Assembly (NCBI RefSeq): GCF_000379025.1 | Contig: NZ_KB900623.1 | Location: forward strand, 170,334-234,333 | Length of the DNA stretch: 64,000 nt | Reading direction: 5' to 3' | Source of the DNA: Orenia marismortui DSM 5156 | GTDB lineage: Bacteria; Bacillota; Halanaerobiia; Halobacteroidales; Halobacteroidaceae | Part shown: positions 42,911 to 52,732 of the stretch, one piece after another | How positions within the stretch are numbered: position 1 is the first letter of the stretch | How the letters are laid out: the number at the start of each line of letters is the position of its first letter | The notes under the pieces: generated by a model | The model's input: the letters and a program-made list of their open reading frames with translations, nothing else | The model's database searches: none | Told to the model about the DNA's origin: nothing | Program-made: the position numbers and the translations under genes

Positions 42911-42939
42911 TTGACAATGGTACTATAATTATTTATAAT
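42911..42939 (+). promoter_or_regulatory. Consensus sigma-A promoter of the efflux cluster
   Basis: TTGACA at 42911-42916, exactly 17 bases, TATAAT at 42934-42939: both hexamers match consensus. Such a strong promoter usually needs a repressor, which fits the palindrome directly downstream. Confidence 0.9.
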
Positions 42940-42941
42940 AT

Positions 42942-42977
42942 AAAACAACAGAACTGACTAGTCAGTTCTGTTGTTTT
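42942..42977. promoter_or_regulatory. 36-bp perfect palindrome, probable TetR-family operator
   Basis: Perfect inverted repeat centred on CTGACTAGTCAG, starting two bases after the -10 box and covering the predicted transcription start near 42946. The core resembles operators of TetR/AcrR repressors. The TetR gene at 51827 closes the same gene cluster. It might also act as a terminator for the upstream activase genes, since T residues follow the right arm. Confidence 0.65.
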
Positions 42978-43109
42978 GATTAATTTTCTAGTTTGAAGTA
43001 TATCTTCTATAACTTATATAAGACTGTAAGGGGTGAGATAATAGTGATATAGTTGAATTTTAATAAAGAAGATAACTAATAATTAAGATAAAATGGAGGT
43101 GCTCTTTTG

Positions 43110-45401
43110 ATGAGAAAAAATATAGTATTAAGTCTAGTATTTTGCATGTTATTTAGCTTAATAATATCAAATTTAGCTTATGCAGAAGAAAGTTATCAAT
43201 CTGAGTTTGATAAAGTAAATATTGGTATAATTTATGAAGGCAATGATAAATTTAATTTAAAATTAAAAAAGAGGATTGAAAAGGAGGTATTAGAATTATT
43301 ATCTGATAAATATCAAGTTGAATTCAGTGAGTTTAGAGCTGATGATTTAGCAGTTCATAATATAGTAATGGATAAGTTATTGGCTAATCAGGAGATAGAT
43401 GTTATTATCACAGCAGGAATTTTGGGTTCTTACTCTGCCATAAGTAGAGATAATTTTAGCAAAGCAGTTATAGCTCCTTTTATAATTGATGATGATACTG
43501 TCAATTTTAGTATCAAAGAAGATAAGAGTGGAGTTGAAAATTTAAATTTTATAACTGTTAATTCTTTTTTGAAAAGGGATATTAAGTTTTTTAAGAGATT
43601 AACTAATTTTGATAAGATGACTTTTATAACTCCTAAGAATCTTATTATGGGAAATGAAAAAATAGTGGAGCTATTAAATCAAGAAGCAAAAGAAAATAAT
43701 ATAAAGGTAGATTACATATATACAAACAATTCAAAAAAAGATATTATAAAAGAATTAGATAAGGTTGAAGTAGCTTATATTTTCCCACTTATATCAGAGG
43801 ATAAAGGATCTTTGCTACTTGCTGAATTGAATCAACGAAAAATTCCTACCTTTACATTAGCAGATATTATGAGGTATAAAGAAGGATTTTTAGCAGGATA
43901 TTCTCATAATAAAGAAATAAATGCAAGGGCAAGAGCTGCAGCACTTAATCTAGAACTGATCTTGGCAGGAGAAGAAGCTGCTGATTTACCGATTTATATT
44001 GATAAAAGTGATGAGGAATTTGTTATCAATATGAAAGTGGCACATGAGATAGGATTTTTACCTGACTGGGATATTTTAGAGACTGCTAAGTTAATTAATC
44101 AGGATAATTCAGTCAAAGAAGAATTAACTTTACAAGAATCGATAGAAACTGCTCTTGATAATAATTTAGATTTACAAGCAGCAGAAAAAGATTTAGACAT
44201 AGCTCAAGATAATTTAAAACAAGCTAGCAACAAAAGAAAGCCGAAATTTGATTTAAATACTACCTATGCTCAGGTAGATGAAACTAGAGCAGGAAAAGGA
44301 ATTGCATCAGAACAGAAGTTAACTGGTGGGCTAAAGCTTGAACAAGTCTTATTTAGTGAAGATCTAAATGCTAATATAGATATCAAGGGAGATTTATACA
44401 AACAAAGTAAAGTAGAGTTAAAGAAGAAGAAATTAGATTTGATTTTAGATACTATTAATTCTTATATTCAAACATTAAAGGTAAGGGCAGATATGAGGTT
44501 ACAGGAAGAGAATATTCAATTAATTAAAGATAATCTAAATATAGCCAAAACTAAAAATGAAATTGGGGTTTCAGGACCTGCTGATATATATAGATGGGAA
44601 AGTCAACAGTCAGTAGGGTTAATGAACTTATCACAAGCAGAAAGTCAATTAAGGATGGTTAAGGATAATCTAAAAAGAACTTTAAACCTACCTTTAACAG
44701 AGGATATTGAACTAACAGAAATAGATCAACAGAACCTATTCCAAGAATTGTATAAAGAATTTAAAATTGATAATTCCTGGGAATTAGAAAATTTAAGTGA
44801 GAAACTGGTTAAAGAAAGTATTCAAAATTCACCAGAGGTAGAAAGTATAGATTATTTAATCAAAGTCAAAGAGAGAGAATATCAAATGAAGAAAAGAAGA
44901 TATTACCTACCTCAAATAGGATTATCTGCACAATATGATACTTATTTAGAAGAATGGGGTATAGATGGTCCAAGTGGGGCAGATGCTCATGGTGAAGATG
45001 AGTGGAGTATTGGTATTCAAGCCTCTTTTCCATTATATGATGGTGGTAACAAGAAGGTAGAACTTTCTAAGGTTAAAAAAGAGATTCAACAGTTAAAAAC
45101 AACTAAAAAATCTTTGGTAGATAAATTATCACAAAATCTTAGAAATAAACTAACAGTTGTTAATACAGAGTATAGAAAGAATAAATATGCTAAGGATGCA
45201 GTGGATACAGCATATAAAAATTTAGAGTTGGTTAAAGATGCTTATTCTAAAGGTCTTGTGTCAGTTGCTGAACTTTTGGATGCTCAATCAGCAGTAATAA
45301 ATGCTAAGAGGCAAGAGTTTGTAACCAAATATAATTTCTTGAATTCAGTAGCTGAGGTACAAAGAGCACTTGGAAATTTTGATATTATTGATATTAACTA
45401 G
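43110..45401 (+). CDS. TolC-family outer-membrane factor fused to an ABC-substrate-binding-like domain
   Basis: Exported protein (signal peptide about residues 1-26, ending LAYA) with two unlike halves. Residues about 35-330 resemble ABC_sub_bind proteins (PF04392): VNIGIIYEGND, DVIITAGILGSYSA, and a closing VINMKVAHEIGF section that matches their NLKTAKALGL ending. Residues about 345-763 are a TolC-type outer-membrane efflux domain with two long helical repeats (LTLQESIETALDNNLDLQAAE; AYSKGLVSVAELLDAQSAVINAK) and beta-strand blocks such as SIGIQASFPLYDGG. ATG at 43110 is used; TTG at 43107 is equally possible after GGAGGT. It leads an operon with an adaptor and an RND permease. The added domain may gate or select substrates (inference). 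Confidence 0.85.
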   Translation: MRKNIVLSLVFCMLFSLIISNLAYAEESYQSEFDKVNIGIIYEGNDKFNLKLKKRIEKEVLELLSDKYQVEFSEFRADDLAVHNIVMDKLLANQEIDVIITAGILGSYSAISRDNFSKAVIAPFIIDDDTVNFSIKEDKSGVENLNFITVNSFLKRDIKFFKRLTNFDKMTFITPKNLIMGNEKIVELLNQEAKENNIKVDYIYTNNSKKDIIKELDKVEVAYIFPLISEDKGSLLLAELNQRKIPTFTLADIMRYKEGFLAGYSHNKEINARARAAALNLELILAGEEAADLPIYIDKSDEEFVINMKVAHEIGFLPDWDILETAKLINQDNSVKEELTLQESIETALDNNLDLQAAEKDLDIAQDNLKQASNKRKPKFDLNTTYAQVDETRAGKGIASEQKLTGGLKLEQVLFSEDLNANIDIKGDLYKQSKVELKKKKLDLILDTINSYIQTLKVRADMRLQEENIQLIKDNLNIAKTKNEIGVSGPADIYRWESQQSVGLMNLSQAESQLRMVKDNLKRTLNLPLTEDIELTEIDQQNLFQELYKEFKIDNSWELENLSEKLVKESIQNSPEVESIDYLIKVKEREYQMKKRRYYLPQIGLSAQYDTYLEEWGIDGPSGADAHGEDEWSIGIQASFPLYDGGNKKVELSKVKKEIQQLKTTKKSLVDKLSQNLRNKLTVVNTEYRKNKYAKDAVDTAYKNLELVKDAYSKGLVSVAELLDAQSAVINAKRQEFVTKYNFLNSVAEVQRALGNFDIIDIN

Positions 45402-45419: not shown

Positions 45420-46646
45420 ATGAAAAAAATAAAAGCTTTATTAATATTATTAACATTAGCTGTTTTATCCTTGATAATAGCAGGATGTGGCAATAGTGTA
45501 GCAAAGGAAGCAGCAGTTAAGAAGGTTATCAGGCCCGTTGAGTATCAGAAAGTAGAATTAAAGAAGGTGGACTTCACTTACGGTTATTCTGGAACTTTAG
45601 AGCCAAATGTAAGTATTAATGTTAGTTTTAGGATACCAGGGAAGATAGAAAATATATTTGTAGAGGTTGGTAATAAAGTAGATGAGGGTCAATTATTAGC
45701 TGAGTTAGATAAGACCGATTATAAATTACAAGTAAAAGCAATGGAGTCTAACATAAGTCAAGCTAAAGCTGGAGTAAGTAGTTCCTTGGCAAAGGTTTCA
45801 CAAGTAGAATCTGCGATAGCTAGTGTAGAAGCACAGTATAGTGAAGCAACTAGTAGCTTTAATAGAATTAAAAGATTATATCAAAATAATAATGTATCTA
45901 AAGCAGATTATGATAAAGCTAAAGCTGCCAAAGAATCTGTTGAAGCAAAATTAAAACAGGTTAAAGCTCAATTAGCAGAAGCTAAAGAAGGTGTGGAAAA
46001 TGCTAGAGCAAGAGTTGATTCCTATCAAAGTCAATTGGAATTAGCTAAATTAAAGTTAAGCTATACTGAGCTAAAGGCACCTATGTCAGGAACTATTGTC
46101 AAGAAAGATTATGAACCAAATGAGAATATAAGTGCAGGTAGGCCTGTATTTACACTTGATGGTAATGGTGGATTTGAGGTAAAGGTATTTGTTGATGAGA
46201 ACTTAATCTCCAAGATAGAGGAAGGTCAGCAAGTAGCAATAGAAGTTTTAGCTCTTAATAAAAGTAATTTGCAAGGAAGAGTAGATGAGATCGGAAGGCA
46301 AATTAAGGGTTATAAAGGAAACTATCCACTAACTATAAGAATCACTAAAGGTCTAAAAGAACTAAGAGCTGGAATGACAGCAAAGGTTTATTTTAGTTTT
46401 TCAGAGGATAAAAACAAATTGATTTTACCAGTATCAGCAGTAATTGCTAATGATGAAGGTAATTTTGTATATACATTAAGCAAATTTTCTGATGGATATG
46501 CAAAAGTAAAGAAAGTTAGAGTAGAGACAGGAAAACTTAACTCTAAAGGTATAGAAATTTTAAATGGATTAAAGATAGGAGAACTTGTAGTAACTAAAGG
46601 TGCAACTCAAATAGTAGACAATCAAGAAGTTCGATTACTAAACTAG
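45420..46646 (+). CDS. RND efflux periplasmic adaptor lipoprotein
   Basis: Membrane-fusion protein that links the RND pump to the TolC channel. A lipoprotein signal ends with IIAGC (lipid-bearing Cys near residue 23). A biotinyl-lipoyl half-motif (FRIPGKIENIFVEVGNKVDEG) is followed by a long coiled-coil hairpin (about 95-215; KAAKESVEAKLKQVKAQLAEAKEGV) and the second lipoyl half (LSYTELKAPMSGTIVKK), then beta-barrel and MP domains. Length of 408 residues is normal. AAAGGAGG lies 9 bases upstream of the ATG; it is 18 bases after the TolC-type gene. Confidence 0.95.
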   Translation: MKKIKALLILLTLAVLSLIIAGCGNSVAKEAAVKKVIRPVEYQKVELKKVDFTYGYSGTLEPNVSINVSFRIPGKIENIFVEVGNKVDEGQLLAELDKTDYKLQVKAMESNISQAKAGVSSSLAKVSQVESAIASVEAQYSEATSSFNRIKRLYQNNNVSKADYDKAKAAKESVEAKLKQVKAQLAEAKEGVENARARVDSYQSQLELAKLKLSYTELKAPMSGTIVKKDYEPNENISAGRPVFTLDGNGGFEVKVFVDENLISKIEEGQQVAIEVLALNKSNLQGRVDEIGRQIKGYKGNYPLTIRITKGLKELRAGMTAKVYFSFSEDKNKLILPVSAVIANDEGNFVYTLSKFSDGYAKVKKVRVETGKLNSKGIEILNGLKIGELVVTKGATQIVDNQEVRLLN

Positions 46647-46662: not shown

Positions 46663-49600
46663 ATGGGATTTACTGAATTAGCAATTAAGAAGAAGTATGT
46701 AACTTTTACTCTAATAGCCTTATTGATTATAGGTGGAGTTGGAGCTTATTTTAATCTGCCAAAATCTGAAAATCCAGGTTTTATTGTTAAAACAGCTACG
46801 ATAATAACTTATATGCCAGGAGCAAGTCCTGATAAAATTGAAAATTTAATTTCTGATAAAATTGAGGAAGCAGTCAAGGAAATACCAGAATTAGATTATG
46901 TAGAAAGTACAAATAAAACCGGTTTTTCTTTAGTAAAAGTAAATATAGAGTCACAATATAAAGATTTGAGACCAATCTGGGATAGCATGAGAAGAAAGGT
47001 TAATGCAATTAAATCTCAATTACCATCAAATAGCATAGGGCCTATTATTAATGATGAGTATGGAGATGTTTTTGGAACTATAATCGGAATTACTGGAGAA
47101 GATTATAGCTATGCTGAGCTTGAAGATATGGTTGAAGATATGCGTGATGAACTCTTAACTATAGATGAGGTTGCTAAAGTAGATATAGTTGGACAGCAAG
47201 ACAAGAGAATTTTCATAGAATATGATAATGATAAGTTATCTGAGATGAATCTTTCTCCATATCAGTTACAACAGATGTTAGCAGGAAGAAATATTATATT
47301 ATCAGGGGGGAATATAGAATTAGGATCAGAAAGGATTCCTCTAGAGCCAACAGGTGATTATAATGATGTAGAAGAGATTAAAAATACTTTAATTTCACTT
47401 CCTGATGGTAATATGATTTATCTAAAAGATATAGCAGATGTTAGAGAAGGATATATAGATCCAGCTCGTGCTAAGATGAGAGTAGATAATAAGCCAGCTT
47501 TAGGATTGGCTATCTCTATGAAAGATGGAGGTCAAATTACTAAATTAGGAAAGAAGGTTCAAGACAAGGTAGAGTATTTCAAGACTCAGTATCCAATAGG
47601 TGTAAATTTTGATTTTATCTCTTTACAATCAAAATTAGTTGAAAAGAAGGTAAGTAGTTTTACTGCAAACTTAATTCAAAGTACCTTAACAGTTATAGCT
47701 GTATTACTAATATTTTTAGGATTAAAAGAAGGAGTTTTAGTATCTACCTTAGTTCCGGTAGTAATTGCTATTACCTTTCTTTTGATGTCAATCTTTGGAA
47801 TAGGAATAGATACAATCTCCTTAGCAGCTTTAATAATATCTTTAGGAATGTTAGTTGATAACTCTGTTGTTATGGCAGAATCAATTATAGCTAAATTAGA
47901 AGAGGGAATGGGTAAATTAGAAGCAGCTATTTCTTCAGCTAAGGAGTTAAAGGTTCCATTATTAGTAGCTTCTTTAGTAACTTGTGCTGCATTCTCTCCA
48001 ATTGGATTTGCTCAATCTAATGTAGGAGAGTTTGCTGGTGGAATCTTTAAGGTAGTAGCCTTAGCTTTAATGACATCTTGGGTATTATCTTTGACTATGG
48101 TTCCTTTGTTTGCCGTCTTATTTTTGAAGATTGATAAGAAAGAAGAGGCATATAATGGGAGAATATATAAAGGTCATGGTAAATTACTATTAAGTCTAAT
48201 GAAGCATAAAGTGTTATTTGTAATCTTAATGATCTTCATAGTATTTTTAGGAGTTAAAGGAATGGGCTTAGTGCCTAAAGTATTTATGCCTAAAGATAAG
48301 AAGACTGTGATGACCTTTGAAGTTAAGATGCCTAAAGGGACTTCAATTAGAAGAACAGAAATGGTTGCCAGAAATATAGATGAGTATATAGAAGATAAAT
48401 TAAAAGTAAAGCCAGAACAAGAAGAAGTAAGCTTCTTTAAACAGCTATTATCTGGTGGAACTACAGTAAAATATAAAGATGAGGGAATATTAAATTGGGG
48501 AACTTTTATAGGAGAAGGTGCTCCAAGATTTACCTTAGCTTATAGTGCTGAATTAAATAGCCCTGAATATATTTACTATTTAATTAACACAACTTCTGTA
48601 GAGGTAATTAAAGATTTAATTCCTAAATTAGAAGGATATACTATTAATAAATTTCCTGATAGCGAAGTTAAAGCTCAAGAATTAGAGATCATGCCTGTGG
48701 GAAAACCAATTCAAATTAGAGTCTCTGGTAGGGAAATGGATAAGCTTTATGATATAGTTCATTCTGTCAAAGATAAGCTTAGAACAATTGATGGAGTTGA
48801 AGACATTAGTGATGATTGGGGATTGAAAACTAAGAAACTAACTATAAATATAAATCAAGATCGACTAGAAAAAGCTGGTCTAAGTAATAGAGATGTAGCA
48901 ATTTCTTTGCAAACAGTCTTAGATGGTATTCAGTTAACAGAATATAGAAAAGATAATGATATAATACCAGTATTATTAAGAGATAAGCAGAGTAAAAATA
49001 TTGATATCTCTACTTTAGAGACTACTAAAGTTTATTCTCAAAGAACAGGAAAATCTGTTTCACTAAAACAGATAGCAGAAATCAAGAATTTATGGGAGCC
49101 TTCTATGATTTATAGAAGGGATGGTATTAGAACGATTACTGTCAAAGCAGATACGAAGGAAGGTTATACAGCAGCAGAAATTAATAATCAATTAAAACCA
49201 TGGCTTGATCAGGAGAAATCAAGTTGGGGAAGAGGATATAACTATGCTTTTGGTGGAGAATATGAAAGTTCTACAGAAGCTAATGAATCTATTGGAGCAC
49301 AGCTACCTATAACTGGATTAGTTATCTTGTTATTGCTTGTTATTCAATTTAATTCTTATAAGAAACCATTGACAATTATATTAATAGTACCACTTACAAT
49401 TATTGGAGTAGCTATTGGTTTGCTAGTTACTGGAAAAGCTTTTGGATTTATGGAAATATTAGGGCTTATATCTTTGGTGGGAATAATTATTAATAATTCG
49501 ATTGTACTCATTGATAGAATTGGTATAGAATTAGATGAATTTAATAGAAGTCCACAAGATGCTATTTTAGAAGCTGCTAAAAGAAGATTACGTCCAATCT

Positions 49601-49815
49601 TCTTGACTAGTGCAACAACTATTTGTGGTTTATTACCACTTTGGTTTAGTGGTGATGCACTATTTGGTGGAATGGCGGTATCTTTAATCTTTGGATTAGC
49701 CTTTGGGTTATTAATAACTCTTGTAGCAGTTCCTGTAGTTTATTCTATAGTTTTTAATATTAATTATAAGAACTATGAGTATAAGATTGATGATAATATC
49801 TCTATAGAGGGATAA
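46663..49815 (+). CDS. RND-family efflux permease (AcrB-like)
   Basis: Proton-driven inner-membrane pump of 1050 residues with the usual duplicated topology: helix 1 at residues 13-30, periplasmic loop to about 330, six helices (about 335-490), second loop from helix 7 (about 515-535) to about 870, and the last helices (870-1030). Motif GMLVDNSVVMAESI in helix 4 contains the relay Asp, and GIIINNSIVLIDRI is its counterpart in the second half. AcrB's two neighbouring Asp are represented by one here. The pump belongs to the HAE-1-like group that exports drugs, dyes or lipids; substrate unknown. GGGAGGGC lies upstream of the ATG. Confidence 0.95.
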   Translation: MGFTELAIKKKYVTFTLIALLIIGGVGAYFNLPKSENPGFIVKTATIITYMPGASPDKIENLISDKIEEAVKEIPELDYVESTNKTGFSLVKVNIESQYKDLRPIWDSMRRKVNAIKSQLPSNSIGPIINDEYGDVFGTIIGITGEDYSYAELEDMVEDMRDELLTIDEVAKVDIVGQQDKRIFIEYDNDKLSEMNLSPYQLQQMLAGRNIILSGGNIELGSERIPLEPTGDYNDVEEIKNTLISLPDGNMIYLKDIADVREGYIDPARAKMRVDNKPALGLAISMKDGGQITKLGKKVQDKVEYFKTQYPIGVNFDFISLQSKLVEKKVSSFTANLIQSTLTVIAVLLIFLGLKEGVLVSTLVPVVIAITFLLMSIFGIGIDTISLAALIISLGMLVDNSVVMAESIIAKLEEGMGKLEAAISSAKELKVPLLVASLVTCAAFSPIGFAQSNVGEFAGGIFKVVALALMTSWVLSLTMVPLFAVLFLKIDKKEEAYNGRIYKGHGKLLLSLMKHKVLFVILMIFIVFLGVKGMGLVPKVFMPKDKKTVMTFEVKMPKGTSIRRTEMVARNIDEYIEDKLKVKPEQEEVSFFKQLLSGGTTVKYKDEGILNWGTFIGEGAPRFTLAYSAELNSPEYIYYLINTTSVEVIKDLIPKLEGYTINKFPDSEVKAQELEIMPVGKPIQIRVSGREMDKLYDIVHSVKDKLRTIDGVEDISDDWGLKTKKLTININQDRLEKAGLSNRDVAISLQTVLDGIQLTEYRKDNDIIPVLLRDKQSKNIDISTLETTKVYSQRTGKSVSLKQIAEIKNLWEPSMIYRRDGIRTITVKADTKEGYTAAEINNQLKPWLDQEKSSWGRGYNYAFGGEYESSTEANESIGAQLPITGLVILLLLVIQFNSYKKPLTIILIVPLTIIGVAIGLLVTGKAFGFMEILGLISLVGIIINNSIVLIDRIGIELDEFNRSPQDAILEAAKRRLRPIFLTSATTICGLLPLWFSGDALFGGMAVSLIFGLAFGLLITLVAVPVVYSIVFNINYKNYEYKIDDNISIEG

Positions 49816-49822
49816 ATAAATC

Positions 49823-49854
49823 AGAAAAGAGACCTAGCTAGGTCTCTTTTCTAA
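49823..49854 (+). terminator. Terminator-like palindrome after the RND permease
   Basis: Perfect 30-bp inverted repeat (arms 49823-49837 and 49838-49852) with T residues within the right arm but only a weak tail. May permit partial read-through into the patatin gene 20 bases later. Confidence 0.6.
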
Positions 49855-49872
49855 CATGGGGGTGATGTTATT

Positions 49873-51714
49873 ATGTCAAAGAAGTTTAGAATATATTTAA
49901 CTGTTTTATTATTAGTTTCTCTTAATTCAACTTATGTTTTGGCAAATATAAATGCAGATAGTAATTTGACTAGAGTGGTCAAAGATGAGGAAATATATTT
50001 AGTAGAAGATTATCAGCGCTTTAAATCATCTTCCCGTCCAAAAGTTGCAGTCGCATTGACAGGTGGAGGGGCTAAAGCTTTTTTTAATATAGGTGTGATT
50101 AAAGCTTTAGAGGAGGAAGATATTCCAATAGATTTAATTGTAGGAACTAGTATGGGATCGATTATTGGAACTATGTATGGTAGTGGAATTTCTATTGAGC
50201 AGATTGAAGAGATAGTAACAGAAGCTCCCTTTACTAATTTATTGGAAATGAATTTTATAGATAATGACTCTTTTTTTGAGACTGCTAAAGTTAATAAGTT
50301 TCTTGAGAATATAGCACCTTATAAGAGGTTAGAAAAATTTCCTATACCTACAGCCTTATTAACTTTAGAAGTAGATAGTGGGCATAAGTATATAATTACT
50401 ACCGATAGAATATCCAAAGTAGTACAAGCTTCCTATGCTATTCCTCATTTCTTTCCACTTTATCAGATGGAGGATAAATATTTTGCTGATCCTGGTATTT
50501 TAGAAAATTCCCCTGCTAAGGCAGCTAAAGCTTTAGGGGCAGATTTTGTGATTGCTACTACGTATACAGCTGATAAAAGTCATGATAGTTATGAAACTCC
50601 AAATAAGATAATTAATCGATATGTAGATATAGTCTCAGAGAAGAATAATAAGAGAATACTTAACAATTATTCAGATATAATAGTTGAAGCTGATATTAGT
50701 GGTTACTCTTTTTTTGATTTTAGTAGTGCTGGTGAATTAATTGAAATTGGATATCAAAGCACTAAAGATCAGATTTCAAAACTAAAAGTGGCCTTAAAAT
50801 CTAAAAGAATTCCTTTGAGAAAAAGAGTAGCTAGAAAGAAGTTAGCTTTAGATCAAGAGTTTAATGATATAAAATATGATAGAATTTTAGTTTCTTCTAT
50901 TATATTTAATCCAGTTCTTCATTATGGGCAAGACTATTCTTTCTTTAAACAAGATTTGTTAAGAAGTTATTTAAATATTCCCCAATATGGCTTTGAGTTT
51001 GAAAAAGATAAGGTTGATTTTAAATTTCTAGCAACTAATAATGTTACTAATGATTTAGAAGCAGAACTTAGGTGGAAGAAGTTAACTCAAAACACTGATC
51101 TTATAGCTAAGACCAGAATTGAGTCTAATGAGACTGATGATGGAGAGATAGGGATTAGATATTATGAGGATAATTATTTTTGGAGTGCAGGGGTAGGAAG
51201 TATTAATAATAATAGTTATGTTTTTGCAGATGCTAAGTATGAGCTAGGTTTTAATAGATTAGATTTAGAAGGAGAAATTGATTTATTCTTTGATGAAGCT
51301 GGTAAAGTTCCTAAAATTTTAATTTCTAAGAAGACAGTTTCTAAATTAAGCGATTCTTGGCTTTTAAAACCGAAAGTAGTATTTAATAATAGTGAGCTTA
51401 TAGAATCTCCTCTGATTTATCGAGGATCTACTCCAGATGATTTTAGTAGGTTTCAATTTTCTTTAGATTATGCTTATACCCATCAGTTTGTTAAAAGCAT
51501 AAAATTGACAAAAATTATTGATATTAAAGATATTGGCGCTTATTTATTCACAGATTATTTAAATGATAAAGAATCCTCTCTAGCTTATGGGGTTGGTTTT
51601 AATGGAGATTTTTATTTATTGGGACTGAAACCCTTTAGGTTGGATTGTTATCTATCTTATGATCAGAATAATGAGGAGTCTATTATTAGGGCTAATTTAA
51701 ATTATAACTTTTAA
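49873..51714 (+). CDS. Patatin-like phospholipase with predicted C-terminal outer-membrane beta-barrel
   Basis: Exported protein (signal peptide about residues 1-24). The patatin domain (about 55-310) has the oxyanion loop LTGGGAKAFFNIG, nucleophile elbow GTSMGS (Ser93) and the catalytic-dyad Asp in FADPGIL (near residue 206; DPG rather than the usual DGG). The remaining 270 residues alternate polar and hydrophobic positions in strand-like units and end in Phe (ANLNYNF), the mark of an outer-membrane barrel. This layout recalls the PlpD type (type Vd) secreted patatins, though no clear POTRA domain is seen. ATG follows GGGGGTGATG. Stands between the RND genes and tetR. Confidence 0.82.
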   Translation: MSKKFRIYLTVLLLVSLNSTYVLANINADSNLTRVVKDEEIYLVEDYQRFKSSSRPKVAVALTGGGAKAFFNIGVIKALEEEDIPIDLIVGTSMGSIIGTMYGSGISIEQIEEIVTEAPFTNLLEMNFIDNDSFFETAKVNKFLENIAPYKRLEKFPIPTALLTLEVDSGHKYIITTDRISKVVQASYAIPHFFPLYQMEDKYFADPGILENSPAKAAKALGADFVIATTYTADKSHDSYETPNKIINRYVDIVSEKNNKRILNNYSDIIVEADISGYSFFDFSSAGELIEIGYQSTKDQISKLKVALKSKRIPLRKRVARKKLALDQEFNDIKYDRILVSSIIFNPVLHYGQDYSFFKQDLLRSYLNIPQYGFEFEKDKVDFKFLATNNVTNDLEAELRWKKLTQNTDLIAKTRIESNETDDGEIGIRYYEDNYFWSAGVGSINNNSYVFADAKYELGFNRLDLEGEIDLFFDEAGKVPKILISKKTVSKLSDSWLLKPKVVFNNSELIESPLIYRGSTPDDFSRFQFSLDYAYTHQFVKSIKLTKIIDIKDIGAYLFTDYLNDKESSLAYGVGFNGDFYLLGLKPFRLDCYLSYDQNNEESIIRANLNYNF

Positions 51715-51826: not shown

Positions 51827-52396
51827 ATGCATCCCAAAAAAGAGAAGATATTTGAGGCTGCGATAGAGAAGTTTGCTAAAAAGGGTACAACTTCTACAAC
51901 GATGCAAGAGATTGTGAAAGCAGCAGGTATAGGAAAAGGAACTTTATATCGTTATTTTGAAAATAAAGAAGATCTAATTTTTTCTTTGATTGAGTTTAGG
52001 TTTAATATAATATTTGAAAAGGTTAAGGCTGATATAATTAAATTAGATGATCCTATTCAAAAAATAGAGAAAGTAATAGATGCACATTTGAACTTTTGTG
52101 CTATTCATGGAGCAAATAAATTTTTAATCCGAGAAGTTTGGGGATATAAAAGTAAATTTAAGAATGCTATTCAAGAGATGATGTCGCTTTACACTGGATT
52201 TATTAAAGATATTATTGAAGAAGGGATAGAACAGGGTAAATTTAAAGAAGTAAATGCGCTTAATGCAGCTACTGCTTTAATTGGGATGATTGATATAACT
52301 ATTATACGTTGTATGATGTTTGAAGAAGATTTTTTAACAAATAAAATTAGAGAAGATATTGTTGAAATTTATTTAAATGGAATGGTTATAGACTAA
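51827..52396 (+). CDS. TetR/AcrR-family transcriptional repressor
   Basis: DNA-binding repressor of 189 residues. The N-terminal helix-turn-helix (about 10-55) reads TTMQEIVKAAGIGKGTLYRYFENKEDLI, the classical TetR pattern. The C-terminal helical domain (about 65-189) would bind a small ligand. AAGGAG lies 6-8 bases upstream of the ATG. It closes the efflux cluster, so its most likely target is the palindrome at 42942 over the consensus promoter; this is inference from context. Followed by a terminator. Confidence 0.92.
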   Translation: MHPKKEKIFEAAIEKFAKKGTTSTTMQEIVKAAGIGKGTLYRYFENKEDLIFSLIEFRFNIIFEKVKADIIKLDDPIQKIEKVIDAHLNFCAIHGANKFLIREVWGYKSKFKNAIQEMMSLYTGFIKDIIEEGIEQGKFKEVNALNAATALIGMIDITIIRCMMFEEDFLTNKIREDIVEIYLNGMVID

Positions 52397-52682: not shown

Positions 52683-52732
52683 AATTAATATATGTAGGGA
52701 ATGGTCGCGACCATTCCCTACATATATTAATT
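52683..52732. repeat. 50-bp perfect palindrome
   Basis: Each 25-base arm is the exact complement of the other, meeting at TCG/CGA. The GC-rich centre GTAGGGAATGGTCG is flanked by AT-rich ATTAATATAT ends. No T-run or gene end justifies a terminator; it resembles a REP-like dispersed palindromic unit. Confidence 0.85.

What the first reader, a model, noticed from the sequence alone, without database searches (positions are those of the whole stretch)
49873..51714. Patatin phospholipase joined to a predicted outer-membrane barrel in a spore-former
Seen: signal peptide, GGGAKA / GTSMGS / ADPG patatin residues, and a 270-residue strand-rich C-terminus ending in Phe. Known: PlpD-type patatins with barrels are type Vd autotransporters of diderm bacteria. 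Inference: an outer-membrane-located lipase co-located with an efflux system, possibly for membrane lipid turnover.
Basis: partly seen in the sequence, partly recalled or inferred. Interest (0 to 1): 0.6.

Follow-up and report, generated by a model that had tools for sequence, protein, structure and literature searches.

The report
Phospholipase fused to outer-membrane barrel
A spore-forming, two-membraned relative of Orenia carries a lipid-cutting enzyme joined directly to a predicted 16-strand outer-membrane barrel without the connecting (POTRA) domain that known relatives have, so it probably trims membrane lipids from inside the envelope rather than being exported to the cell surface.

Summary
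Window 49873-51714(+) encodes 613 aa: a signal-peptide-like start, a patatin domain (Pfam 2.8e-26; nearest solved fold PlpD, Z 29.5) and a C-terminal barrel. AlphaFold2 on 20 relatives (pLDDT 86, pTM 0.82) gives exactly 16 strands. All 31 barrel rows of the structural top 50 are Omp85 proteins (TamA Z 18.0). The only long loop lies between strands 11 and 12 and carries YRG; strand 13 carries F-x-D: the loop-6 and strand-13 marks of Omp85. No sequence profile detects the link. Unlike PlpD/FplA there is no POTRA (32-42 aa linker in 37 of 37 full-length proteins) and the dynamic patatin lid is about 34 residues shorter. It is a POTRA-less variant of patatin-Omp85, found in 31 of 59 genomes of its class and a few families outside it. 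Omp85 topology and the 2024 PlpD work place the patatin in the periplasm, so "type Vd autotransporter" is not supported. Likely role: phospholipid turnover at the inner face of the outer membrane, regulated with an RND/MMPL exporter by a TetR protein. PldA and MlaA were found in 0 of 13 genomes of the order. New variant of a known kind; function inferred.

The parts
49873..51714 (+). patatin-barrel gene, 613 aa
   Evidence: ORF, Pfam patatin, AF2 model
49873..49947 (+). signal-peptide-like N-terminus, residues 1-25
   Evidence: by eye from the translation; AF2 helix 3-26
50041..50796 (+). patatin phospholipase domain, about residues 57-308; oxyanion GGG 64-66, Ser93, Asp206
50803..50901 (+). 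short linker, residues 311-343, with one helix (327-334); no room for a POTRA
50902..51711 (+). predicted 16-strand outer-membrane barrel, residues 344-613
   Evidence: AF2; Omp85 barrels are the best structural matches
51388..51450 (+). long loop between strands 11 and 12 (residues 506-526) with IYRG 515-518, equivalent to Omp85 loop 6
   Evidence: motif definition PMC7644211
51547..51555 (+). F-x-D motif on strand 13 (F559, D561)
43107..45401 (+). TolC-like outer-membrane efflux protein with an unassigned N-terminal domain of about 330 aa
   Evidence: PF02321 2.6e-45
45420..46646 (+). HlyD-type membrane fusion protein
   Evidence: PF13437 4.7e-17
46663..49815 (+). AcrB-type RND transporter
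   Evidence: PF00873 2.4e-156
51827..52396 (+). TetR-family regulator, C-terminal part YsiA-like
   Evidence: PF00440 5.9e-17, PF08359 1.2e-8
42911..42939 (+). promoter-like TTGACA-17-TATAAT, 12 of 12 matches
42949..42970 (+). perfect palindrome just after the promoter, candidate TetR operator; core ACTGAC-NN-GTCAGT kept in two congeners
49820..49855 (+). hairpin between RND and patatin genes; kept as a hairpin with different letters in two congeners

Best explanation
An outer-membrane-anchored phospholipase A built as signal peptide + patatin + short linker + compact 16-strand Omp85-type barrel, with no POTRA and a shortened patatin lid. Sec exports it and the cell's BAM inserts the barrel. 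Because Omp85 barrels have both ends on the periplasmic side, the patatin hangs directly under the barrel, facing the inner leaflet, and hydrolyses phospholipids there through its Ser93-Asp206 dyad. In Orenia it is probably transcribed with an RND efflux system and a TetR regulator that may sense an acyl lipid or another envelope stress; the exporter may remove the released products. Shown by computation: domain make-up, conserved catalytic residues, predicted 16 strands, Omp85 marks, absent POTRA, gene order. Inferred: periplasmic orientation, activity, substrate, co-transcription, link between lipase and pump, what the TetR senses.
For: AF2 with 20 homologues: pLDDT 86.3, pTM 0.82, 16 strands between 344 and 612. 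VIA-align: PlpD patatin Z 29.5; all 31 barrel rows in the top 50 are Omp85 (TamA 18.0, BamA up to 17.6, FhaC 16.9, Sam50 15.8). The only long loop (21 aa) lies between strands 11 and 12 and holds YRG (34 R, 3 K of 37 full-length proteins); F-x-D on strand 13 has D in 37 of 37 and F in 36 of 37; both are the Omp85-wide marks described in PMC7644211. Catalytic S and D 37 of 37. Linker 32-42 aa in 37 of 37. PlpD precedent: patatin periplasmic and lipids raised in a plpD deletion (PMC11116518). PldA in 0 of 13 and MlaA in 0 of 13 genomes of the order, with E. coli ringing as control. BAM-type Omp85 and LpxC present in the own genome. RND or MMPL genes within 5 kb of 8 of 21 full-length loci, with MMPL + LolA_like + a Wzi/DUF1302-like protein beside the own paralogue and the G008 gene.
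Against: No sequence profile links the C-terminus to Omp85: 0 of 20 members hit PF01103 at E<=1, hhalign to the order's own BamA barrels gives P 0.14, and the C-terminal profile finds no PDB sequence at E<=10. Orientation, dimerisation and activity were not tested. 3 of 13 genomes of the order lack the full-length gene, so it is not essential there. 13 of 21 loci show no RND or MMPL neighbour within 5 kb by the BLAST used, and three of the eight positives are one orthologous operon. A hairpin separates the pump genes from the patatin gene, so co-transcription is not certain. FplA was reported at the surface.
Confidence: 0.66

Rival explanations
1. Type Vd autotransporter: the barrel exports the patatin to the cell surface, where it acts on lipids of other cells or on the outer leaflet.
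For: PlpD was first described that way and FplA was reported surface-exposed when made in E. coli (PMC5724010); same order of patatin and barrel.
Against: No POTRA; very short extracellular loops (mostly 2-6 aa); PlpD itself was re-assigned to the periplasm in 2024; the Omp85 loop-6 plug motif is kept.
Confidence: 0.12
2. The barrel is a 16-strand barrel of another family (porin-like) that only resembles Omp85; the patatin is simply anchored by it.
For: No significant sequence similarity to Omp85; Foldseek also lists OprD-type porins, OmpG and OmpM.
Against: All 31 barrel rows in the VIA top 50 are Omp85; the loop-6 YRG and strand-13 F-x-D sit at the Omp85 positions; the weak hhalign match is in register at both motifs, reversed controls P 0.99.
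Confidence: 0.12
3. The protein is chiefly part of the pump: the lipase prepares or degrades a lipid-like substrate that the RND or MMPL system exports, rather than serving general outer-membrane upkeep. (This can be true together with the best explanation's anatomy.)
For: Gene order in three congeners and MMPL/LolA_like/Wzi-DUF1302 neighbours in two other loci; related TetR (44 percent) next to the patatin in both exporter settings.
Against: Most homologues stand apart from any RND found by the BLAST used (13 of 21); hairpin between pump and patatin genes.
Confidence: 0.25

Closest known systems
PlpD of Pseudomonas aeruginosa (patatin-Omp85, PL-Omp85)
   Same: N-terminal patatin with Ser-Asp dyad (Z 29.5 to its crystal structure) and C-terminal 16-strand Omp85-type barrel
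   Different: No POTRA; lid region (PlpD 89-126) about 34 residues shorter (26 against 60 residues between the two aligned blocks); about 28-residue N-terminal extension with a predicted beta-hairpin; barrel not detected by PF01103
FplA of Fusobacterium nucleatum (type Vd)
   Same: patatin + barrel layout
   Different: FplA has a POTRA at 359-431 and is about 760 aa (PMC5724010); here 613 aa and none
POTRA-less Omp85 subfamilies of Heinz and Lithgow 2014 (metallo, noNterm)
   Same: Omp85 barrel without POTRA
   Different: Those carry a domain of PF00149 or nothing; in the passages read, their patatin-like group has a POTRA (PMC4104836). That the metallo group lacks a POTRA is recalled, not read
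Outer membrane phospholipase A (PldA/OMPLA)
   Same: outer-membrane phospholipase proposed for lipid upkeep
   Different: PldA puts its active site on a 12-strand barrel (recalled) and belongs to PF02253; none found in 13 genomes of the order

Membership tests
Omp85 superfamily | 16-strand C-terminal barrel | tested here: met
   AF2 model, 16 strands 344-612; prediction only
Omp85 superfamily | (V/I)RG(F/Y) arginine on loop 6, between strands 11 and 12 | tested here: met
   YRG in 34 and YKG in 3 of 37 distinct full-length proteins, in the only long loop; definition from PMC7644211. The residue before R is Y and the one after G is variable, so only the RG core is met
Omp85 superfamily | Asp on strand 13, (F/G)xDxG | tested here: met
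   D561 37 of 37, F559 36 of 37; the following G is not kept
Omp85 superfamily | salt bridge between loop-6 Arg and strand-13 Asp | not testable with these tools
   model coordinates were not among the files in the Python box
Omp85 superfamily | PF01103 sequence profile | tested here: not met
   0 of 20 members at E<=1; L034, a PlpD-type protein, scores 8.3e-40 as control
Omp85 superfamily | at least one POTRA (usual, not universal) | tested here: not met
PL-Omp85 / type Vd (PlpD, FplA) | N-terminal patatin with Ser-Asp dyad | tested here: met
PL-Omp85 / type Vd (PlpD, FplA) | single POTRA between patatin and barrel | tested here: not met
   linker 32-42 aa in 37 of 37; POTRA control in L034 8.7e-8
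PL-Omp85 / type Vd (PlpD, FplA) | long dynamic lid (PlpD 89-126) | tested here: not met
   24-27 residues at this place in 37 of 37 against about 60 in PlpD; lid from PMC11116518
PL-Omp85 / type Vd (PlpD, FplA) | homodimer; position of the patatin (surface or periplasm) | not testable with these tools
   needs experiment or a complex prediction

The most novel reading that the evidence does not exclude
A separate, POTRA-less branch of patatin-Omp85 that serves as the main outer-membrane phospholipid scavenger of diderm Firmicutes without detectable PldA or MlaA, with the barrel stripped to little more than 16 strands plus the loop-6 plug. A second POTRA-less patatin barrel in other families of the phylum may have gone down to 14 strands, which would break the 16-strand rule of Omp85.
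Probability: 0.3. Interest if true: 0.72.

Novelty: new variant of a known kind. Interest (0 to 1): 0.5.

Why it matters
POTRAs are treated as part of the definition of Omp85 proteins, and PlpD's lid is thought to control its lipase. A family that keeps the lipase and the barrel but has neither POTRA nor long lid gives a natural minimal version to test what those parts do. It is also a candidate for how Firmicutes with an outer membrane, but without detectable PldA or MlaA, remove phospholipids from that membrane, an open question for these lineages.

Tried and rejected
Sequence-profile links of the barrel to Omp85: hhalign of the C-terminal alignment against the order's own BamA barrels gave P 0.14, against two small-Omp85 groups 0.09 and 0.21, reversed controls 0.99, while those small Omp85 groups matched BamA at 4e-18 and 1.7e-19; Pfam, NCBIfam and PDB profile searches found no barrel family (single weak rows OMP_b-brl 0.012 and OmpX 0.048, one member each). 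So Omp85 kinship rests on predicted fold and motifs. Foldseek alone ranks mixed barrels.

Hits to the RssA, CBASS lipase, anti-phage and VpdC models, far below their cut-offs in the first member, reflect the shared patatin domain and were set aside.

A search for the barrel without patatin: 36 of 38 class matches lie in frames of 608-659 aa; one (G315:C87) is cut by the contig end and one (G346:C51) looks cut at the contig start. No stand-alone barrel was found. In one search the script chose a wrong ORF for L151; that row was dropped, leaving 37 of 38 distinct rows.

Second AF2 job (L056 group, 9 sequences): 14 strands, pLDDT 74, best barrel rows OmpG Z 12.1 and BamA 11.6; too weak to lean on.

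Not in print, as far as searched: (PMC open library only) gave no paper on a POTRA-less patatin barrel or on patatin barrels in Halanaerobiales; the one listed hit for patatin + Halanaerobium was a Wolbachia paper (listing only). PMC5007114 has no mention of patatin or phospholipase in its main text. One search (MMPL + LolA_like + DUF1302) gave nothing of use.

Full report
Place and host. The window lies in a 3.46 Mb, 9-contig genome (G000). The nearest named full-length relative is Orenia metallireducens (74 percent), and G012, a same-genus genome, has a contig of the same length as that record, so the host is an Orenia-like member of the Halanaerobiia (group name recalled). Spo0A and LpxC are present, as are four Omp85-type genes: an LPS-type diderm with a sporulation regulator.

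The gene. ORF 49873-51714 codes for 613 aa. Residues 61-218 match patatin (2.8e-26); by sequence the nearest solved structure is PlpD (1.1e-29) and by fold PlpD again (Z 29.5, 247 residues, rmsd 2.6). The oxyanion GGG, Ser93 and Asp206 are invariant in 20 of 20 aligned proteins and in 37 of 37 distinct full-length proteins.

The C-terminus. AF2 on an alignment of 20 homologues gives pLDDT 86.3 and pTM 0.82, with 16 strands between residues 344 and 612. Connections are 2-6 residues except the first (12) and the one between strands 11 and 12 (21). That last one is where Omp85 proteins have loop 6, and it holds S-P-x-I-Y-R-G. Strand 13 holds F-x-D. PMC7644211 (passages) describes the loop-6 (V/I)RG(F/Y) arginine paired with the strand-13 (F/G)xDxG aspartate as seen in all Omp85 structures. 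Here Y-R-G occurs in 34 and Y-K-G in 3 of 37, and D in 37 of 37. In the VIA-align top 50 (995 of 1000 Foldseek-ranked chains aligned), 19 rows are patatin-like and all 31 barrel rows are Omp85. Against this, no sequence profile sees the kinship.

No POTRA, short lid. Between the last patatin helix and strand 1 there are 32-42 residues in 37 of 37 full-length proteins, with one short helix in the model. FplA has a POTRA of about 73 residues at this place, and L034, a Chlorobiaceae patatin-POTRA-Omp85 protein, shows that Pfam would find POTRA (8.7e-8) and Omp85 (8.3e-40). PlpD's lid is residues 89-126 (PMC11116518). In the PlpD alignment 26 residues here face about 60 there; the offset of 19 between chain index and residue number was worked out and puts the lid inside the missing part.

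Distribution. Full length in 10 of 13 genomes of the order (14 genes). With the C-terminal profile: 31 of 59 genomes of the class, 38 matches. In an even draw of 299 genomes of the phylum, 243 have some patatin match, but only 11 have matches reaching the C-terminal end and one more (G075) a shortened one (the listing was cut at weaker matches). Six of these twelve (G032, G177, G251, G299, G205, G075) lie outside the class.

Surroundings. In the window and in two congeners the order is TolC-like, MFP, RND, patatin, TetR, all on one strand (L033 and L068 appear to be the same contig seen twice). A 12-of-12 promoter at 42911 is followed by a palindrome whose core ACTGAC-NN-GTCAGT is kept in both congeners. 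A hairpin lies between RND and patatin in all three, with different letters but the same form; it may lower expression of the last two genes. The own paralogue (51 percent) follows an MMPL transporter, a LolA_like protein and a weak Wzi-like protein. In G008 the same kinds of gene, plus a TetR 44 percent identical to the window's, precede the patatin. In all, 8 of 21 loci (window and L067-L086) have an RND or MMPL gene within 5 kb (for the 20 fetched loci, for the window); the BLAST used could miss distant ones and several contigs are short.

Function. PlpD's patatin stays in the periplasm and a plpD deletion raises many membrane lipids (PMC11116518, abstract and passages). FplA was reported on the surface (PMC5724010, passages). 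PldA and MlaA were found in 0 of 13 genomes of the order each. My reading is a periplasm-facing phospholipase tethered by a compact Omp85-type barrel, used for phospholipid turnover and regulated with an exporter. The TetR's YsiA-like C-terminal part (PF08359, 1.2e-8) hints at a fatty-acyl signal; that meaning of YsiA is recalled. Each functional step is inference.

Verdict. The type Vd label fails on the POTRA and lid tests. This is a POTRA-less variant of patatin-Omp85, apparently undescribed in the papers searched.

Noticed in passing
L056:1474-3045(+), L060, L050, L118-L121, L049, L051: A second group of patatin + C-terminal barrel without POTRA in other families of the phylum; shallow AF2 model shows 14 strands (pLDDT 74) and an LFGLYP motif at the place of LLGLKP. 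Four f26 genomes carry both groups.
   Followed up: partly
43107-45401: TolC-like protein with about 330 residues before the OEP domain that match no Pfam family and no PDB sequence; by eye like a periplasmic ligand-binding protein.
   Followed up: partly
L068/L033, TetR after the patatin gene: In the Orenia metallireducens record the tetR next to the patatin gene has an in-frame stop early on.
   Followed up: no
L048:1378-2832(+): A homologue of 485 aa in G075 lacks most of the barrel but keeps its first and last parts, as by an internal deletion or an assembly fault.
   Followed up: no
52685-52730: Perfect 46-base palindrome with a T-run downstream of tetR, a strong terminator-like hairpin on both strands.
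   Followed up: no
L089, L109, L110, L112 (about 340 aa) and L090, L106, L108, L111, L113, L114 (about 440-490 aa): Two groups of short Omp85 proteins in the order, one of about 340 aa with little room for POTRAs.
   Followed up: partly
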